From Perkinsus marinus ATCC 50983 (Eukaryota; Perkinsozoa; Perkinsida; Perkinsidae), in NCBI RefSeq assembly GCF_000006405.1, contig NW_003204474.1, positions 29,346 through 81,497 of the forward strand: DNA of 52,152 bases. The letters are read 5' to 3'. Shown here one piece after another: positions 20,544-40,958 of the stretch (within the stretch, counting starts at the first letter, position 1; each line of letters starts with the position of its first letter). The translations under genes and the position numbers were made by a program. The notes under the pieces were generated by a model, which saw nothing but the letters and a program-made list of their open reading frames with translations, was not told the DNA's origin and did no database searches.

Positions 20544-22397
20544 ATGTCCATCGCCAACCGCGACGAAGCCAAGCGGTGCCGGGATATAGCCGTGCATGCT
20601 CTGGAGAGGTAATAGAGGCTTCGGGAGGCAGCAGTTGGTCATGATGGTATCATGAGTGGGGATCGGGATAAGTGTATACGCTTTCTAGAGAAGTCTTTGC
20701 GGATGTATGACGATTCCCACACTCAAAGCCTCTTACAAAAGGTAGCCATGTATATCAACATGAGGGTAGTAATGGGAACTTCCCATTGGGAAGTAGTAGG
20801 TACGGGAGGGTACGGATACTCCTAGTAGCGATGCCGAGGAGACATCTTCCGAGGTGACTACTGCCTCCACTGCGGGTATACGGCATCGGAAAGGAGATGA
20901 GTCTGTAGGGGATGGGGCTGAGCCACAACGTACCAATAGGGATGGGAAGTCGTAAGACAGGGTTGGGAATTTGGCGGACGACGCCCATCGACCTTGGAGA
21001 GATACACTGAGGACCAGAACCATTTAGTGCAGCGTGTTTTACGCACTCAGGATTACTATCAAATCTTACAAATAGATAGAAATGACGGCTCTGATGACCT
21101 TGATGGAAAAGTGAAGAAAGCGTAGTGAACGAGAGCAGTCTCCCATACTCGTGATGGAGAGGATTAAGGTATCGTAAATTGGCTCTCAAGTTGCACCCGG
21201 ATAAGAACGGTGCTCCAGGGGCCGAGGAAGCCTTCAAAAAGGTCTCCAAGGCATTCCAGTGGTTATCAGGTAATTCATTGCCTCTCATCACTTCACCCTC
21301 GCTCACCGATCCTCTTTAGACGAGACTAAGCGTCGCACATACGACCGGACGGGCAAGGATCCTGAGCAGTCAGCATCCTCCTCCTCTACGAGGAGAACTG
21401 GACGAGGAGTAGGGCAGTTGTCGGTACCTTGGGAGTATCTTTCCTCTTAGGATGATTTTATGACAGCACAGGATATCTTTGGTGCATTTTTTGGCGTACC
21501 ACGACAAGAATCCCCAGTAATATAACCATTCTACAACGATCGACATATATGTTTCTGATCAGTTTTATGCTCAACATGCCCAGCCGCAACACCGTGAGAA
21601 CCACACCAGTGGTATGTACGGCAATCGGTGTAGAGTGGTTAGGTTCCTAGTCTCAGGTTTCACCATTCTACAGTTCCTACCCATAATCATGCTATTAATC
21701 GTTACTCTATTGGCTAATTTCAATGCGGATAATTCCTATAGTCATCAGAGGTAATGCCACAGAACGTCCTACTTCTCGTTGTCCATCTCAATCATCTCCC
21801 TCCCCTGTTACCTCGTCGGAACACAACTATATTAACGCCGATTAGAGAAAGTAGATAGGTAGGATGACGTGAAGTGGAGGAAATGCGTTATAGTGTGCCA
21901 CGTTCTGGTCTTGTATGCCCTCATTATATCACATGTTACCATCCTCCCGATCAGGCCAAAGTTTTCACTCCTACTAAGGCATACACAGTCCGAGAGAGTA
22001 CTCCAGATATGCATATCAGCTACTACGTGACACCTAGTCATGCCGCTAAGTATCCATTAGGCTCTGTTGAGCAAGAGTAAAATCATTCAATGCTACTCTT
22101 CCTGATATGGGAGTGCTCCTCAGGAGGTTCCAGACGACTGTGGAGACGTCATATGTAAATAACCTGTTGGCAGACTGTGACTTCGAAGAGCGGACGATGG
22201 TACGGGACATTCAGCTGGCTAAGCGTCACCGTTCGGTGAAGCAGTTAGAGCAAGCAAAGAACACACCACGTCCATCATGCGATAAATTAAATCGATTGAA
22301 GGTGGGTTATGGTATAACGAATGGGCAGTTGAGGATGTTGTGGTATCAGGAGGAGTACCCTCGCCAGTACCGACGAAGTGTTCAGTACTGGTACTAG
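20544..22397 (+). CDS. DNAJB12/DNAJB14-like membrane J-domain protein
   Basis: ER-membrane Hsp70 co-chaperone family. Exons: 20544-20608, 20657-20741, 20800-20951, 21002-21121, 21169-21269, 21320-21408, 21451-21516, 21563-21750, about 21894-22076, 22124-22397; introns mostly 42-58 bp. The N-terminus [18 protein letters not shown] plus [17 protein letters not shown] is the characteristic helical region of this family. The J domain follows ([18 protein letters not shown], then [20 protein letters not shown] with the HPD catalytic motif). Then come an F-rich linker ([15 protein letters not shown]), a transmembrane segment ([16 protein letters not shown]) and a C-terminal DUF1977-like part ([17 protein letters not shown]). 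The junction after 21750 is weak: it needs a 143-bp intron. A 48-bp GT-AG segment at 22289-22336 has no stop and may or may not be an intron. Confidence 0.85.
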
Positions 22398-22419
22398 GCC
22401 TTCTCGGAGAAGGGGCGGA

Positions 22420-22456
22420 GCTCGGCATCCGGGTTCGATTCCCATGCCTGGCGTTT
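22420..22456 (+). other. tRNA-T-arm-like sequence followed by T5
   Basis: GGGTTCGATTCCC, a B-box-like core flanked by GGCAT and ATGCC, then GCCTGGCG and TTTTT (a possible Pol III terminator). A full cloverleaf is not convincing: only a 5-bp acceptor pairing can be drawn with a site 90 nt upstream, and that site lies in the J-protein coding exon. Best read as a tRNA-derived or tRNA-like remnant. Confidence 0.4.
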
Positions 22457-23201
22457 TTCTGCAAAAATATGTTTTTTGCACGGAAATCTACATGGTCCGG
22501 GCGGAACCCTAATTTCGTATTTTTCCTAGTATCCCCAGAGCGAGAGCTATCGAGTGGTGTATAGCATGTGATCATAACCTCTCTAGATCGAGCTGGATAA
22601 TTTGTTCGCACGCACGCACGCACAAAGTGTTAGTAAAGTGAGAGAATACGCTCCGCTCGCTTCGCTCGCTCCGCAATTGATTCTCACCATCGTCCTCCCA
22701 AGTGATTGTACTGTCTACCGAAGCAACCTCATTTGTGAATATTGCTATTCACCAGGTGTTACCTGGGTAGTATTAATACTACGAAGAGTTGGGTTGTTAC
22801 TATTAACACAAGGGATACATTGACACAGGAAAGCGATGCTCGTTATCAATGGACAACTAATAACCAGGAAACAACACTATATCTCGTATCATGACGGCCT
22901 TTAAGGAAGATGACAATATGAGAATACAGGTAATTACCAGACGTTGCCCACTATTGGAACTGCTATAGATTATTTGAGGGCTGGGGGTAATGATATTACC
23001 TCTAACTGTCATCTAGATTATTGATACAGTACGGAAAAAGGATTAGACAACAATGACCACACATCAAAAAAAGTGCAAGTACAAACAGACCCATCATACT
23101 TCTCGCTCATACTTCGCTCTAGCTCTCACCGCCATCAGTGATGACTCATCACCAACACCCATAGGAAAGCCGTCGATCGGTGAAAACCTGAGATATCCGT
23201 A
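22457..23201. other. Spacer with short palindromes
   Basis: About 745 bp with no gene that I can support. It contains a (CGCA)n microsatellite near 22607, a GCTCGCTTCGCTCGC stem near 22655, ACCAGGTGTTACCTGG near 22750, and the perfect 16-bp palindrome GTAGTATTAATACTAC near 22770. Another simple AT-rich stretch runs to the end of the next gene. Confidence 0.5.
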
Positions 23202-29165: not shown

Positions 29166-32100
29166 ATGACCTCTCGAAACGGGCGACGGATCAGCGACGA
29201 GAAGCTTGGTGGTCGTTGGGATCCCACTCGCGATGGCATAAAACCAATCGATCTGAACAGGCTCAATCCTGATACAACAGGAGCGTCGACTAAGTTCTGG
29301 GCAGAACTAAGAGGTGCTCCCAACTGGTAATGAGCTGTCCTATACGTCTCTCAGGACGTCGAGTTCTTCTGGATGGCCGATGGCATGGCTTTATACATGG
29401 TATCACCCAACTGGGCGACGAACCTGCTGATGGAGGATCTCCTGCCCACTCGATTTCTATACGGTGAGAACCTTCAGCTTCTCTTTGTTCCCTTCTCGAC
29501 TCGTGGTCTTACCTCAGTCTAGTATCTCAAGACTCTGAAGTGAAGATCGATCCCACGACAGCTTTGAAACACACACTGAAGGCCTTCCCCAGCCAAGGCA
29601 GTCGACTTGATGCATCGGATCATGAGTATTGCTATGGTACGCTCCCCTGGGCTCGGGACGGTCGAGCTGCGAATTACTCCTCTCAGGGAAGTTCGACTTG
29701 GTCATCGTCGGTGGTGGGACCGCGGGATTGGCAGCAGCGACTGCTTTCACTGATATCGCCAGGCCGGACAGCAATGCTCTCTTGTTGGAGGCAAACCCAA
29801 CGGAATTGGGAGGGAGGGCAACTCGTAGCGTTCCGATTGATGTAAGGCAATCTGCGCGGGTTCGAATCCTGGCGACTGTATTACACATTGAATTATTTCC
29901 CTCAGAATATCAACACGGTGAACACCTGCGCTTGGTTCGCTACTTCATCTCCCGAAGATTCCGAACTTACTAACTTGTTGCACAATAGCCTCAAGATCAA
30001 ATGTGATAAGAAATTCCGTTGGGAGAACCTCACGGCTGGCGATACCGGTTTCTTCTTTGGCACCTCTCCCGTTAGTCGGGATATGGTCGACGCTTGTTTC
30101 GCATTCCATCAAGCATGCGTGGTCGGGTCCTTTCTACTCCTATGCCAAGATGACGCCTTCCTCCCCCTATACGATCGATTCCGGTCTCATTACATGTCAA
30201 TGGTCCGGGATGGTATCGTGAAGGAAAATCAATTCTTAATTTTTGTCACCGAGAAGACGAGTGATGGAGCGTCAAAGACCTCTGAAGCTGAGGCGGTTCT
30301 CGACTACATGCGTTCTGCGGAGTTCACGCATACAGGGGCTCCAGACTTGTCCCGTGCTATGACTGAATCAGAGTATCTCACTCGTAAGATAATCATGAAT
30401 ATGAGAAGTGCTGCGAAAGAGGAAGCCAGCAGCAGCAGCCCCAAGGCTCTCGACTTTGCATTCAGAGACGTCCTCACGGTTGTGTCCGCCTTGCGGCAAG
30501 TTGACCATGGGCAGCTGGCGACGTGGATCGCAAAAGGTTTGGACGAGAAGGAGCAGCAGCTCGGTGATGGCGTTCCCGAGGACCTGGCCTGTACACTTCG
30601 AGATTGGGCTCAATTTGCGAAGGATGACAAGAAGGGAAAAGGTCGACCCCGCGGGTACGGTGGATTCATCCACGATGGCCGTCAAATCGGCTGGGGCGTT
30701 ATGATGTCAGAAGTGGTGAACATGGTGAAAACCCACCAGTCTCGACTCGAGGTCATCTGCGGCGCTCGAGTAAGGAAGATCGATGGCCCTCACGGTGTCA
30801 ATGATTGGACCTCTGTTGTGTGGTTTACCCTACCCGGTCTTGGTTCCAACGTGAGGTTTGTTCTGTGTAAGAATGTCATCATTTGTTTACCTCTACCGAT
30901 CGTTCAAAGGGCTGATCCAGTGTCTGTCCTTCCCTCACCAATGGGTGCTACTGCCCTTCAAATATCGGGAATTCCCGAGGAGGAGCTCACTCGTCTGAGG
31001 GCATCGTTGTCGAAACTCTGGGCCGGCTTCGACGAACGTCTTATCTACACCTTCAAGGTCGCACCATGGGCCCAAGGAGAGCCGACTCCGTTTCCTGAGG
31101 AGTGGAAATCACCAGAGTGTCAAGGCTGGGACGACCTCGAAGTCCTCAAGATTGCGAGTATGAGTTGCTTACGGTTCGTCAATATTACGAAGTATTATCC
31201 GCGAGCATATCAGTTCAAGGCAGTATTGGTCGCATGTATCTCCTCGGCGACGTCTCGAAGTCCCCAAGGCTGGCATGCATTCGTTAAAGTGGCACTGACA
31301 AGTCTATTCAAAGGCTGCACTACTGTCCCTGAGCCTCTGGCCAAGCATTTGATCACCGACAATCTCATTCAAACTGCCTTCTGCAAGATACTTCCCGGTT
31401 TTTCAGAAGATCAGCATAGTCTGGATAGGCCTTTGGGAGCATTCAAGGGAGCTCTCAGACTTGCTGGTGAGTACACGAGTATCAATGCTTTTGGAACGGT
31501 CGATGGAGCGTGGCAATCTGGTCGCCACCATGCCGTTGAGATCATCAGAGAGCATGTTGAGAATCATCAAGCATCTCTGGACGCTGAGTCAACTCACAAT
31601 GAGACGGAGACCGACCTTGTCAAAGTTGGCGAAGACGAGAGCTCGATTGCTCAGACTAGTATTCCGGCCTCGGCTGCTGACGATGGAGTAGTAGATTCTT
31701 GCCCCCCTCGAATCGTCATTCAGCCAACTATGCGAGACATCGATTGTTTCTCTTACGGCTTCCGGTATGTCAAGAGGACCCCTGAGTTTGACCTTGTGTG
31801 CCCAGCACGGAAGAACGTCCGAGATGCCCAACTCGACCGTGAAGTGATTGAGGCATGGGTAAAGCGAGTTCAGCCTACGTACGAGGACTTGAACAAATTC
31901 ATAAATGCAATAGTCGAAGAGAGCTCCAGAGGAAGGAACTCCGACGTCTGTGGCCTTGCTGATTTCTATGCGGAGGCGGTACTCAAGGCGCGTCGGATGA
32001 TCGTTCGACCATGGGAGACGAGCGACTATCCAGATCTCGGCACTATGAAAGTGAAACGGCTAAAGATCGAGCCTGACGACGCAGTCGACCAACGGGCAAC

Positions 32101-32302
32101 ATCAAGCCGATCAAGCGATGGCATCGAAGCTGTGGCCGAGGGAGGGTTCAGATATTACGTACACTGGGAGGGACAGAAATGGTACCTTCCACTTCGGGCA
32201 AGCGAAGAACAGTGTGTGACGGATGGAAGGAGGTGGTCCACTTTGATGGAAGGTCATTGCAGTCACGGCCACATCAAGAGAGCTCTGGCTACGTGGCGAT
32301 GA
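29166..32302 (+). CDS. Flavin amine-oxidase-like protein with large C-terminal extension (5 exons)
   Basis: Exons 29166-29313, 29355-29463, 29518-29636, 29687-29841 and 29906-32302; introns 41, 54, 50 and 64 bp; 975 residues. The FAD-binding motif is at about residues 125-170 (LVIVGGGTAGLAAA, then ELGGRATR, the DBM and GG doublet region). Near residue 665 lies GEYTSINAFGTVDGAWQSG, the C-terminal FAD-contact motif of monoamine/polyamine oxidases. The part between is diverged. The protein continues about 300 residues beyond the oxidase fold, ending in FRYYVHWEGQKWYLPL, which I cannot place. The N-terminal ~120 residues are also unassigned. Exon 5 is 2.4 kb, unusually long here. Amine, L-amino-acid or other substrate is unknown. 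Its last intron contains a tRNA-T-arm-like core. Confidence 0.8.
29842..29905 (+). other. Intron with tRNA-T-arm-like core (amine-oxidase gene, 64 bp)
   Basis: GT-AG intron (GTAAGG...CCCTCAG), phase 0. It contains GCGCGGGTTCGAATCCTGGC, a B-box-like sequence (consensus GGTTCGANNCC). Removing it joins GGRATRSVPID to NINTVNTCAWF in one frame. Confidence 0.7.
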
Positions 32303-33153
32303 TTCTGTGGTCATCACATTTGTGATTTGTACACTGACGATTCCATCAAATTGTTATTGCGTTGACTATACAAGCTGACGTGGTCGGCATAGGGCTTGAG
32401 ACTTGCATACAATCGTCTAGGGATGAACGATTTCAACAATTTTTCGACTATCAGTTGGTCTTTCCCAGCTAGATGGTCCTGCTTCAGTGTGGCATAGTTC
32501 AGTTAGGCAACGAGTTACTTCAGTTGGGATGCTCGTGCTGTTATGACTGGTGATCGTCATTGAGTGTGCTATTGAGTGTTGGGCAATGCAGCAGAGACTG
32601 GTAGAGTACTCATTGCTGCTCTCTTAAATGACATATGTTTCTACCAACCAGTATTCATACAGACTCGAGAGAAAGCAACAGGTTCGATTTCCAATTCGCA
32701 AACACTCTCCACTGAGCACTCAACAACAAATGGTGGCGGCAATTGCAGTGAGACTTTAGTTATCGTAGAAATAACGTCACTATTGCCATAATGATACACG
32801 CTAGCGACACGTACGCACTCAATCGCTCTCCTAGGACTGCAAAACGACCGAAGAAGCCTGGAAACAAAGACGGCGATGACGTAAGGAAGCTTTACAATTG
32901 TATTACTTACCTACGAAACCGGGCTTGTGATTATCAATAAACGAAGGAAACTTGGGTCTCAGCAATGTACATGTGCAGATGGTGAGGAGAATGACCGTTA
33001 GCAGTGACTGGAAGTTGAACAAGGCGCTCATTGTTTATTGAGTCTTTGGAGTCGACGAAAAAACTTCAGTGGCTCGAGAGTTAGAAATGAACCAAACAGG
33101 GATGGAAATTCACAATGAGACACGCTCTTGCTTGGTGCGTTGAAAAAATGTTG
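32303..33153. other. Convergent 3' spacer
   Basis: About 850 bp between the ends of the plus-strand amine-oxidase gene and the minus-strand HID1 gene. It should hold both 3' UTRs. No gene, tRNA or clear terminator motif is seen. Confidence 0.4.
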
Positions 33154-36100
33154 CTACTGATTGATCAAAATAAGCTGAATCTTCTTCCAGTCGTACAACG
33201 GCAATGCCTGGGACCTCGTAAAAATGACACCCCAAAGATAGCTCGTGAACCAGAGCTGTGTATAGGCATTCTGCTGGTAGGTTCTGATGACTATTGGATG
33301 TGGCACGGGGAGGATCCCGACCATGGTCGTATCCTTAAGCAGCTCTAACACACCATTCTGGTCCGTTACACCTTCAGATTCGCATTCCGAAGCAATCTGT
33401 TGAAAACTACATACTGTAGTTACGAAAGAATAACCAAGACCGACCTTGGGATACAGAGCGTTGAAAAGACGATAAATAGCTTCCATTTTCTGCATCAATT
33501 TGTTCTTCCATTCTTCTAGCCACGCATCTGTCGGGACCCACTTGTCCTCGGCAACAGAAGGATCGCCTATATAAAGATATAACCCCAGCTCATTTAGGGT
33601 GGGATCGGGTTCATACCACTAGCGCCTGCTGCCTGATGCATCAGCGCTGTCTGTTTCTTTACTCGTGATTCTGGGCTGCCAACAGCTCTGCCATACTCGT
33701 CGAATTCATTCACTGATTGTTGTGCGCCTAGGCCATGTACTGTGAACGAGAGGGGGGCGACCGTACAGGACTCACTAGTCTCCTGTGAGCTCTTTTCCTG
33801 ACCTGCAGCAGCATTGTCGCTTTCCATCGACGATTCTTCAACGATAGAGGGCACTGTAGAGGTTGAAGGGCTCGACTTAGGCAGCTGACAGAAGCATGTT
33901 GAGCTCCACTCGAGTCGAGACATGAACGGCTCACCCTCAACTGCTTGAGCGAGTCGAAGACCTCTTTATGTCGGAGGACCGAGTACACCAGTTGGTGGTT
34001 CCCCTCGTATTGGTATTGGATCTGATATCATTATTAGAGAACTTAATCAGCACATGGGCTGAGCCCTACCACATTGTTGAGGCTCTCGACGAGGAAGAAT
34101 ATAGCGTTGTGGTTGAGAGGCCCTTTGAACAACCAGTGGGGCTTCGAAAACCGTTCCACAAGATTGAGGATCTTTATACATGACTCGAGGCAGAAGATCC
34201 TCACATACGCCGAGCTGAAAGGGTGAATTGAACCAACAATCTCGAGAATGAGAGCAACACAGACTATCTACTGAACCACATTCCCATCCAAGCGGGACCA
34301 ATTCCAAGCGTAGAGCCTACATGTTGCAGAGGGAAGTGAGCATCATATCTATCAAACTCTCAGCCCCTGTTGTCGGGGACTTAGCCGTGGCAGCGACAAA
34401 CAACGCGTCCGACACGACTCGATAAATACTCAAAGTCATCAGATCCGCCCAAGTGCCGGTGAACTGATCCGAAAACAATGGCGAGGGGGGTGGGGGGGGG
34501 CGAGGCGGGCCAAATGAACTCACCACGGGAACATCCTGGATGCGGCTACCCCTGAAGGGCGCATTCAAAGCAACTGCAAAGTCGCGATCTAAGAAAGGTA
34601 TTCTCCACGTAACCGGATGGGACGGCAGTAACCTACCGCTGCTCAGAACAAGTATGATAAAACTGCACATATGAAGGAGACCTATTTTGGCTTGAGAGTT
34701 TCGAGATGACACTAGAAGGTCCAGGAGGGGATGGAGAATCTGGGGAGCTTGGGCATAACATGATCCCATGAACAACAACATTGGACATTTTGCAGTGACG
34801 AGTGTCACAGAAGACTCCTCATCACGACAATACAATGAGACTATGAATAGGTCCGCCTCACAGAACAGACTCCTACGTCTTCAGTATGGCGAATACAGAG
34901 CCTCTTCCTGTAGGTTGAGTTGATGGTAATCAAGTGCCACAACAATATGAGAGCCTCCTGGTAGAATGGCACCTAGCAGTGGTAACTGATCACTGATGCC
35001 ATGTGTGAAGTGGCCTTACAACTTTCTGCTACTCGGGAGGTATGTNNNNNNNNNNNNNNNNNNNNNNNNNNNNNNNNNNNNNNNNNNNNNNNNNNNNNNN
35101 NNNNNNNNNNNNNNNNNNNNNNNNNNNNNNNNNNNNNNNNNNNNNCGATTCGGACCAAACCATCAGCCTGAGTGCGGCAAAATGGAGGTACCAGGGATCG
35201 AACCGGGGACCTCCTCGCTACCATGAAGTCCAGTTCACCAGTCTTCTGAACTCCTCTAGCCATTATTCTATAAACGTTACGAGGCTTGGAAGCATCATCA
35301 TCCGGACCAGCTAGAGGGAAGGCACACGAGGAAAACCCTGAAACCATGCATACTGCTAAGCTCTATGATAGTGATGGTCCAGAAAAGCTCAAGATCAGAA
35401 TGAACTAGAGAATCCTACTTCTGCGTGCAGCCGACTCCTCTTGGTTGGAGCTCTCGGATATCGAGTTGTTACTGTCATCCTCAGAGCCAGTCCCGGTACG
35501 ATGGGTTTTCACCATCTCCGATCCAGTATTCTCCGGTGAGGGATTGAAGTCTAACAATGCGCATAAGACCTGCACAGTACAAGTGCCCGCACCAGGGTTC
35601 GAACCTGGGACCTTCACCTGTAAGGACAGATCCACCAAAGCCTCCTGACTTCCACTAGAGAACGCCGAGCCGTATGGGACGCCCTGAGCTAACTTATCAC
35701 TGTCGATGAACAATCGAGAGTATCACATATCCTCTCGGATCGTAGGCCACCACAGTGCTCATAAGACTGCAGTATAGATTCGCTGTATAAGGCAGGTCGC
35801 CGCTGCAGAATGTGAGAAGCACTCTGGAAGGATTCGAGGAGTAGGATGATATGGGCTGAAAAATAAGGCGATCAACGAGAAACATGCTGACCAGTATAGT
35901 TTTTTATGCTATTAATACGGCTACAATTTATCCACAAGAGTGTTCTAAGCTTACCTGGAAAAGAGGTTCACTGAGCACAGTGAGGAGACACTTGAGGACC
36001 TCACAGCGAGCACTCATGATCTCATCTGTCGTATCATATGACAAGTAGCAGTAACAACATCCTACTATTCTGATTCACTGGTAGCTCCTTAGCAGTTCCG

Positions 36101-37549: not shown

Positions 37550-39053
37550 CTATATACGGTATTGCTCAACAAACTCCTCCTCCATCTCCTGGAGCCCTTC
37601 CATGCCCTGAACATGGTAAAAAGGGAATAAAATCCTACTACCAACACCACTACCTGTGCACAGACGACGAGTGAGTGCAGAGGACCACCGAGCTTCTCCG
37701 AAGCCTTATCCGAAGCAACATCTTCCGCTCGGCCGAATACGATAGATTGGTTTTGGCAATCAACACGTGCCACACCCTGAGGGGACGACTAAGTGGAGTC
37801 GTTGCTGCTGAATGCTTCTGCTACTACCACAACAAGGGAGTCCTTCCCGACGATTCCGGGACTGCCTCGATCCTCATCAATTTCCATCAACTGCTCTAGG
37901 GCTGTCTGCACTGACATAAACCTGTGAAAACTTTCGTCACGCGCCACGAAACTAAACCTACGGCATGAATACCTAGGAGGCTCATAGATCTCGTTGCCTT
38001 TCATGAGATTGACAACACTCTGCTCCTTGACCTTGATATCAAGCAAACACAAGGTGTGCAACCCGCGTTTGGCGTTGTCTGCTATTTTGTCAAAGTAGCT
38101 GTCGGGCTTCCACGAATCATCCCAGAAGCATATCGATACTGTCTCCCCGAAGCGGTAACTGCGGGAACGCGCATCTCAGAATTCACAGCTGACCTAGGAG
38201 GCAATGGACCCTCAACCAACGATTCAAACCATACATGACGTCACTTCAAACATGTAAATTGATAGACCTCGATAAAGCGCGGTATTGCTGAGTGCAACCT
38301 TAGCATAGGATGATGTACGTTTAAAACAGTAGCAGAATCAGCGCTACTCAAGCTCTCGTACGAGACAAACATTGCCGAACCTAGAAGTCTCACAAGGACA
38401 CAACTTAACATAGAAAGTCATTTTCTAATCACTTCAAAGTAACCCTCAGACTAATGCGGTATTATAAATACCCACAACCCCCTATTACAGATGTAGACCA
38501 CAACATGCAATGGCGTTCATGATACTGGCATTATGGACGACCGATACCTGTTAGTGATCATACTCCAGGGATAATCATCAAGAGGCGAACCTCGATGCCC
38601 TTAGCTCGGGCCCGCAGGAAGAGATCAGTATGTGTAGTGGCGCACAGGGCATCTCCAACGACACAGAAGCATACGTTGTTTTCTGTAGCCTGCAGTCACC
38701 AACCTTCATACGACTCTGACGCATAAGCCTGCTACCCTTCCCAGCATTTCCTCACAACCCCCTTCCACTAGATGTCGGTCCGCCTCTATGAATGGAACTT
38801 CAATACCGTACCTAACACCTACATGCAGATGCCATTATATCCCCAACAGTTACTACGCTTCTCTCAAGTCATCAGGTTTCTGGCCAACCAGAATGCTAGT
38901 GTAACTCTCGAGGTAAACATAGTCGGCCTCACGCAGAGCTTCCAACCCTGTTGTGTAACAGATGACCAACAAACTGTGAAAGCTAGCACTACCTTTCAGA
39001 GTGATGTCCTTCGGGTCACCAAGCCCTAGACCGATGAATGTCAGTTTCCCCAT
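37550..39053 (-). CDS. DPH5: Diphthine (methyl ester) synthase
   Basis: SAM-dependent methyltransferase of diphthamide synthesis on elongation factor 2. First exon 39053-38993 ([20 protein letters not shown]), then 38947 onward ([18 protein letters not shown]). Further blocks: [119 protein letters not shown]. The last exon ends [11 protein letters not shown] and a stop at 37550. All segments are in the family order. Short introns separate most; the one before the FGET exon is about 300 bp. It is 138 bp upstream of HID1 in the same orientation. Confidence 0.93.
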
Positions 39054-40115: not shown

Positions 40116-40197
40116 GCTCAGGCCGCGCCCGCAGCGCGGCAGTTACAGCGGTAGACTAAAGACCTGGAGGGCGACAGTTCGATACTGAGTCTGGGCA
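40116..40197 (+). other. tRNA-like sequence
   Basis: An 82-nt stretch in which GCTCAGG can pair with TCTGGGC at the 3' end (7 bp with two G-U), followed by A. Inside are an A-box-like CAGCGGTAGAC and a T-loop-like AGTTCGATACT. The D- and T-stems are imperfect, so a functional tRNA is doubtful; a tRNA-derived (SINE-like) element is likelier. Its 3' end GAGTCTGGGCA resembles the complement of the candidate primer-binding sites. Confidence 0.35.
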
Positions 40198-40958
40198 TTT
40201 CGAAGTGAGATCGCTTTCTATTGCGAGGCTTTTCGCAATCGAGATCGCTGACGATCGTAGAGCGAACTTACGAGATTTCTGAAACTCATTTTCAGTCCCA
40301 ATTTGAGGCATGCTTCTGCCCTCGGAATTCGTGAACCGTTGGAGACATTCTGTTGAAAACTCAGCTACGGACAGAAAGTGTGTGAAAGGGACAAGCACTG
40401 GCTAGAGATACCGGCAGAACGACAAGGACTGTTCATCTTCACGAGAGAATCTCACTAGAGGTCGGGGCCACCTGCAGCGAAAGTGATACAACTCGTGGTT
40501 AGGACTTGGTCGCCCGTAAGTGCCTCAGTTGTTTGATGATCCTTGGCTGAAGGCTACGCGAAACTGGAGTGAATTCCCTCTTCGTCAACGGACTGGGACA
40601 TGGAACAGACCTGTGAGATGGGTGAACCACGGTCCGTGGTCCACGGAGCCATATGGGACCTGTTCGGTGACCTGGGGTTAGGCAGCTCCAATACAGCATC
40701 CAGTCGAATTACAATATAAGCAAGACTGACACTGAACGGACGAGACTGACAAGTGCACAGCCAAGTTAGACGACGAATTGTGAGCAACCCTCATAATCAA
40801 CACAATCACTCTTGGTCCAACGTTCTGAATATCCAACACGTAACGACCGTGAGCAGTCACTGTTGCCCAAACGTGGCTTGTGATTTCATGGCTGCTAGAG
40901 TCATATGCGCTTCGATCACTTCACGACGCCTGGACAATGGCTATAATGACGAGAATTC

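What the first reader, a model, noticed from the sequence alone, without database searches (positions are those of the whole stretch)
29842..35617. Introns carrying a tRNA T-arm/B-box core: possible tRNA- or SINE-derived introns
Four GT-AG introns in two genes contain GGTTCGANNCC-type cores: 29842-29905 (amine-oxidase gene, plus), 34215-34320, 35168-35221 and 35571-35617 (HID1, minus). Each core is in the sense orientation of the host gene. Two share the wider context GGTCCC-n-GGTTCGA-n-CCCTGG, like a tRNA variable loop plus T arm, and the 106-bp intron also has an A-box/D-arm-like word upstream at tRNA-like spacing. Excision restores the HID1 alignment with no extra or missing residues, so these are introns and not exonic insertions. 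None of the roughly 30 introns I delimited in the 0-14 kb gene array has the core. This fits an introner-like family born from tRNA-related elements. I do not know of a described tRNA-3'-half-derived spliceosomal intron family.
Basis: partly seen in the sequence, partly recalled or inferred. Interest (0 to 1): 0.85.

Follow-up and report, generated by a model that had tools for sequence, protein, structure and literature searches.

The report
tRNA-end-like core in short introns
The oyster parasite Perkinsus marinus appears to carry well over a thousand copies of a 35-letter sequence resembling the tail end of a tRNA gene, and many copies seem to make up most of a very short intron, facing either way, which hints at an unusual source of introns.

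Summary
The fourth, 34215-34320, is not a family member. The genome is Perkinsus marinus. GGTTCGANNCC occurs 1266+1330 times against 152+162 for the reversed pattern. Of 94 non-tRNA hits read, 69 share a sharply bounded ~35-nt element matching tRNA positions 44-73 plus a T-run. Splice-site pairs bracket 33 of 66 elements within 25 nt, against 12.8% for elements grafted into random flanks (P 7e-13), in BOTH orientations; sense-only does not hold. Removal leaves no alignment gap at the join in six of seven homology-tested introns. In 36 called introns (median 51 nt) the part outside the element is below 39 nt in 33. Against recent insertion: no target-site repeat, no T-stem covariation, no empty site among 13 second copies. 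Best reading: an old introner-like family descended from a tRNA-related (SINE-type) sequence. Rival: a selected B-box-type site. No transcript evidence was available.

The parts
35570..35617 (-). 48-nt GT-AG intron in the HID1 gene; element at 35579-35613 (-), score 40.5
   Evidence: removal restores alignment to relatives; score; partial tRNA covariance hit; my gene finder labelled it exon
35168..35221 (-). 54-nt GT-AG intron in the HID1 gene; element at 35178-35212 (-), score 39.0
   Evidence: my gene finder labelled it exon
29842..29905 (+). 64-nt GT-AG intron in an amine-oxidase-like gene; element at 29851-29885 (+), weaker match, score 25.2; length not a multiple of three
   Evidence: no homology test was run on this intron
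34215..34320 (-). 106-nt HID1 intron with a looser tRNA-like layout (TGGTTCAGTAGATAG 44 nt before GGTTCAATTC, counted by eye); NOT a member of the element family
   Evidence: predicted intron; family score -0.4; no tRNA hit in Rfam
22393..22678 (+). interspersed repeat of about 287 bp carrying a relative of the element near its 5' end (22424-22458); 28 long copies listed including this one, 92-100% identity
   Evidence: (40 of 50 candidates scored, so a lower bound)
40168..40202 (+). degenerate copy of the element (two core mismatches, score 16.3)

Best explanation
The reported cores are part of a dispersed family of ~35-nt elements in Perkinsus marinus. Consensus AGGTCSC-R-GGTTCGATCCC-YGG-NNNN-GRC-A-TTTYT equals tRNA positions 44-73 plus a pol III-type T-run. 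Up to half of the sampled copies form most of a very short spliceosomal intron, in either orientation. Proposed working: (1) a tRNA-related, SINE-type element supplied the 3' tRNA-like module [inferred from sequence layout]; (2) copies landed in genes in both orientations [both orientations shown; insertion inferred]; (3) splice sites arose just outside the element, GT 4-9 nt before it in 9 of 12 sense calls and AG after its T-run, or AG after the reversed AGGTC end in antisense calls, so the piece is spliced out and the protein is unchanged [positions shown; splicing inferred from protein homology]; (4) later divergence erased everything but the core [inferred]. The copies examined are old enough to be shared by second genomic copies.
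For: Genome-wide count 2596 against 314 for the reversed pattern. 69 of 94 non-tRNA hits carry the bounded element. Splice-pair bracketing 33 of 66 against 12.8% of 3184 grafted controls; 32 of 69 against 10% of 533 shifted positions. No gap at the join in HID1 x2 (36), GCH1 (43), DIM1-type dimethylase (44, 84), CBS (45, 85) and AK8 (47, a short 25-residue match). The part of the called introns outside tRNA positions 44-73 is below 39 nt in 33 of 36; 39 nt is the shortest P. marinus intron reported in PMC3101222 (passages read), so insertion into a pre-existing intron does not by itself explain them. 20 of the 36 are not multiples of three.
Against: No RNA evidence. No target-site repeat (longest direct repeat 4.81 vs 4.84 permuted). 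Splice sites are not at a fixed offset from the element. No empty site among 13 second copies. T-stem pairing at chance, and four near-random positions between conserved ones look more like a constrained bipartite site than simple descent. AAA alignment has a 2-residue gap beside the join. Pfam found no family in the joined CBS and AAA peptides, and the HID1 peptide stayed below cut-off (19.3 vs 22.5 bits). Homology cases were picked by eye. One of the 69 (L088 +285) is probably Sec24 coding sequence (judged by eye; motif recalled). The 36 called introns include doubtful ones: on random positions the caller's 75th and 90th percentiles per strand were 7.9 and 15.2, the cut-off 9.5. The HID1 48- and 54-nt pieces are multiples of three without in-frame stops, so translation is not formally excluded.
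Confidence: 0.55

Rival explanations
1. The core is a selected nucleic-acid site (a B-box-like TFIIIC site of the ETC kind, or an unknown splicing or chromatin signal) kept inside short introns; the tRNA likeness reflects shared B-box function, and no insertion made the introns.
For: Core positions stay intact while neighbours vary: at score above 16 in 249 kb, 4 non-tRNA copies have 1-2 core mismatches and 22 are intact. T-stem pairing is not kept. A four-base near-random stretch lies between conserved blocks. A second unrelated core, TTTCGTGGCGCGYGA, also sits in short predicted introns. 2 of 117 core bases changed between second copies against 17 of 519 other intron bases, same direction but not significant, P 0.55.
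Against: A B-box site needs only ~11 bp (recalled), yet tRNA positions 44-48, the discriminator A and the T-run are also conserved at tRNA spacing. The loci used to count decayed cores were mostly chosen for intact cores.
Confidence: 0.25
2. A SINE-type element inserted into pre-existing introns, which later shrank back to the usual ~45-60 nt under length selection.
For: Other predicted introns have median 59.5 nt and 56% are at most 80 nt, so length selection is plausible. Longer related repeats exist.
Against: The part outside the element is 10-46 nt in 35 of 36 called introns and below 39 nt in 33, shorter than the shortest P. marinus intron reported (39 nt, PMC3101222), so repeated deletions sparing the core would be needed.
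Confidence: 0.13
3. The segments are in-frame exonic insertions that are translated.
For: P. marinus model P0002 translates the 48-nt HID1 piece and P0001 its first part; 16 of 36 called introns are multiples of three.
Against: 20 of 36 are not multiples of three; GT-AG brackets far exceed control; the P. marinus CBS model P0140 omits the segment; insertions would fall inside conserved enzyme segments.
Confidence: 0.04

Closest known systems
Introners (548 families in 175 genomes, PMC9860276; section 7 and passages read)
   Same: Introns sharing sequence at unrelated sites, 5 to more than 2,000 per family; some families co-opt both splice sites from the surroundings and some lack TSD and TIR.
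   Different: Here only a ~35-nt core is shared, it resembles a tRNA 3' end, both orientations form introns, and splice sites are at variable offsets. The words tRNA, SINE and Perkinsus have 0 occurrences in that paper's main text.
Single SINE-born introns: rice catalase A, and four Alu-made 3'UTR introns in human (as told in PMC2394776; passages read)
   Same: A SINE-type sequence giving rise to an intron.
   Different: One-off cases; here a genome-wide family with a tRNA 3'-part core inside coding regions.
Amoebophrya introner elements (PMC7789003; passages read)
   Same: Repeated introns in an alveolate relative.
   Different: Those have inverted and direct repeats and are mostly described among introns with non-canonical splice sites; here GT-AG, and no direct repeats found.
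Extra TFIIIC (ETC) sites (recalled; only a listing seen)
   Same: B-box without a recognisable A-box at many places.
   Different: Extra conserved tRNA positions and a tight link to short introns.

Membership tests
Introner | similar introns at many unrelated positions | tested here: met
   shared over a ~35-nt core only
Introner | element ends coincide with, or lie at a fixed offset from, the splice sites | tested here: not met
   donor-to-element 4 to 35 nt (sense), -1 to 29 nt (antisense); element-to-acceptor 6-25 and 1-38 nt
Introner | target-site duplication (present in some families only) | tested here: not met
   longest direct repeat 4.81 vs 4.84 permuted, P 0.60
Introner | presence/absence at orthologous or allelic sites | tested here: inconclusive
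   13 of 13 second genomic copies keep the segment; no DNA of other Perkinsus species could be searched
Introner | spliced from mRNA | tested here: inconclusive
   protein homology only; no transcript data
tRNA gene | complete cloverleaf with anticodon | tested here: not met
   ARAGORN: none in the window; in L009-L088 no tRNA at any of the 69 element hits
tRNA gene | paired T stem | tested here: not met
   49:65, 50:64, 51:63 pair no more often than permuted
tRNA-derived SINE | A-box and B-box at tRNA spacing | tested here: not met
   at most 0.15 bit at any position from -60 to -9 across 70 hits; no dedicated A-box scan was run
tRNA-derived SINE | interspersed copies of a longer unit | tested here: inconclusive
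   true for the 287-bp repeat at 22393-22678, not shown for the intron copies
ETC / TFIIIC site | B-box occupancy by TFIIIC | not testable with these tools
   no binding data

The most novel reading that the evidence does not exclude
A tRNA-3'-half-derived mobile element acted as an orientation-independent intron maker in Perkinsus, founding on the order of a thousand spliceosomal introns, and a second unrelated core (AATTTCGTGGCGCGYGA) marks another such family in the same genome.
Probability: 0.35. Interest if true: 0.85.

Novelty: new variant of a known kind. Interest (0 to 1): 0.68.

Why it matters
Many described introner families look like DNA transposons (TSDs in 49 of 130 and TIRs in 72 of 177 families that could be judged; PMC9860276). 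A family built round a tRNA 3' end that works in both directions would add a pol III-related source for introns, and would make intron birth testable by comparing Perkinsus genomes. If the core is instead selected, it points to an unknown signal inside minimal introns. Either way, P. marinus gene models that translate such segments may need correcting.

Tried and rejected
Rejected: chance; intact tRNA genes; a 5' acceptor partner upstream (no excess over swapped controls); T-stem covariation; target-site repeats; stronger core constraint between second copies (2 of 117 vs 17 of 519, P 0.55). Whole-genome donor tests were only modest: GTAG 64 vs GATG 44 (sense); GTGAG 48 vs GAGTG 23 (antisense; 9 of the 23 lie at places that are also in the GTGAG list). 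A coding-strand test of flanks gave sense better in 33 of 70, that is, no strand bias. The first home-made coding model failed and was replaced; the second labels the 48- and 54-nt introns as exon. The intron caller at its 95% control level flags 13 of 69, about twice the roughly 10% expected for two strands. Rfam on seven loci gave no RF00005 hit, though L049 drew a weak tmRNA-clan match there (15.8 bits, below gathering). Pfam on three joined peptides passed no cut-off. Rows dropped: 10 tRNAs and 6 rows of the L054 tRNA array (110 to 94 hits); 25 hits below the flank threshold (94 to 69); two near-identical repeat copies and L088 +285 (69 to 66). For one search, of 69 elements 3 had no candidate, 28 scored below 9.5 and 3 above it were dropped by name (L062, L064, L088 +285), leaving 35; the window 54-nt intron, one of the 28, was put back by hand, giving 36 (recount). 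Of 30 loci prepared for the second-copy test, 28 were searched.

Searches for earlier reports. I saw no report of this family in their listings, most of which were capped; the library is open-access only. PMC9860276 was seen as passages plus its section 7, PMC3101222, PMC7789003 and PMC2394776 as passages; the rest as listings only.
Full report
WHAT WAS CHECKED. The window is 52,152 bases at 48.6% GC with one 100-N gap and lies on contig C56 of a 54.5-Mb assembly. The assembled HID1 protein is, where aligned, 100% and 98% identical to two P. marinus ATCC 50983 models and 77% to P. olseni (found), so the organism is Perkinsus marinus. Three of the four introns carry the stated core. The 106-nt intron does not carry the stated pattern and is no member by the family model, although it shows a loose tRNA-like layout of its own that Rfam does not recognise.

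THE FAMILY. GGTTCGANNCC occurs 1266+1330 times, against 152+162 for the pattern read backwards. I read the surroundings of about the first 100 listed places plus the window. This sample follows contig order, not gene content. Of 110 motif hits (104 exact, 6 with GGTTCAA), 16 are tRNAs or lie in a tRNA array. Of the other 94, 69 exceed the 99% background in their flanks. Aligned, the hits show a block beginning and ending abruptly: tRNA positions 44-48 (AGGTC), 49-65, a near-random stretch 66-69, then 70-73 (GRC-A), then T's; upstream of -9 there is almost nothing. At 69 of 104 exact hits, the genome would hold roughly 1,700 copies with an intact core (extrapolation), fewer as loci because the assembly holds second copies.

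IS IT tRNA-LIKE? The layout fits a tRNA 3' end position by position, including the seven-base acceptor strand, the discriminator and the T-run (tRNA numbering recalled). The tRNA covariance model gives a weak partial hit on the 48-nt intron (15.4 bits, E 0.37 on 71 bases, model 30-71), ending on the discriminator; a scan of seven other loci gave no such RF00005 hit, though L049 drew a weak match to another family of the same clan. Against a functional tRNA: outer T-stem pairs are at permuted level, no upstream partner of the acceptor strand exists above control, and there is no A-box-like conservation. I conclude tRNA-related in sequence, not in fold.

INTRONS. Within 25 nt, donor-acceptor pairs above threshold bracket 33 of 66 elements, against 12.8% of 3,184 controls in which the same elements were set into random flanks (P 7e-13; sense 21% vs 7.8%, antisense 30% vs 5.1%). 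Shifted positions gave 10% against 46%. The splice matrices came from my own gene model trained on about 249 kb, which may contain some of these introns. Homology gives independent support in cases I picked by eye. Without the segment there is no gap at the join in HID1 twice, GTP cyclohydrolase I (62 nt, sense), the DIM1-type rRNA dimethylase (48 nt, antisense), cystathionine beta-synthase (49 nt, antisense; against solved structures a 2-residue gap lies four residues further on) and adenylate kinase 8 (54 nt, antisense; short match, domain E-values 0.055 and 0.024). A VCP-type AAA ATPase (51 nt, sense) has a 2-residue gap beside the join. So six of seven homology-tested introns join without a gap there. 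Pfam on three of these peptides passed no cut-off.

ANATOMY. In 36 called introns (12 sense, 24 antisense; not all secure) the median is 51 nt, 16 are multiples of three, and the part outside tRNA positions 44-73 is at most 30 nt in 28 and below 39 nt in 33. Other predicted introns have median 59.5 nt; PMC3101222 reports 39-1622 bp with the majority under 100. The introns are thus mostly element, yet splice sites sit at variable distance and no target-site repeat is seen.

AGE. Second genomic copies covering both flanks were found for 13 of 28 tested loci (7 of 14, 6 of 14). I read all 13 and each keeps the segment. One diverged pair (L016 and L091) keeps the intron with a core mismatch and many flank changes. 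No empty site was seen, so recent mobility is not supported. Decayed cores are scarce in 249 kb (4 against 22 intact at score above 16), which hints at constraint, but most of those loci were chosen by intact cores.

SOURCE. Window 22393-22678 is an interspersed repeat (28 long copies listed including this one, 92-100% identity) holding a relative of the element. Other repeat copies share the module with different 3' parts. This favours a SINE-type source, but I have not shown descent of the intron copies from it.

CONCLUSION. I favour an old introner-like family of tRNA-related origin (0.55) over a selected B-box-type site (0.25) or insertion into existing introns (0.13). It is not filed as a proven introner family, because fixed element ends and target-site repeats were tested and not met, and splicing and gain remain inferred.

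Noticed in passing
window 37922-37961 (-); also L014, L021, L022, L023, L024, L025, L060, L066: A second dispersed core, AATTTCGTGGCGCGYGA: of 9 copies with the fuller core in held loci, 7 lie in predicted introns and 7 are sense (read). TTTCGTGGCGCGYGA occurs 272+238 times genome-wide against 0 for the reversed pattern (first seen).
   Followed up: partly
window 22393-22678: Interspersed repeat of about 287 bp; 28 long copies listed including this one, 92-100% identity.
   Followed up: partly
L057, 867-888 (-): Another GCH1 intron seems to hold a decayed antisense copy of the element (GGGAGAATTGAACTCGGGACCT), read by eye, placed.
   Followed up: no
window 35570-35617: P. marinus gene model P0002 translates this likely intron (VKVPGSNPGAGTCTVQ) and P0001 its first part: probable annotation error.
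   Followed up: partly
window 34215-34320: Intron with a D-arm-like word 44 nt before a T-arm-like word, tRNA spacing, but no Rfam or family-model support.
   Followed up: partly
L054 (contig C9 about 90900-91900): Tandem array with 188-bp spacing containing tRNA-Leu genes.
   Followed up: no
L013 and P0077/P0078: Two P. olseni proteins named DNA polymerase epsilon subunit 2 match the dimethylase; in L013 an exon that looks POLE2-like by eye and the dimethylase lie a few kb apart, so neighbouring genes may have been fused in annotation.
   Followed up: no
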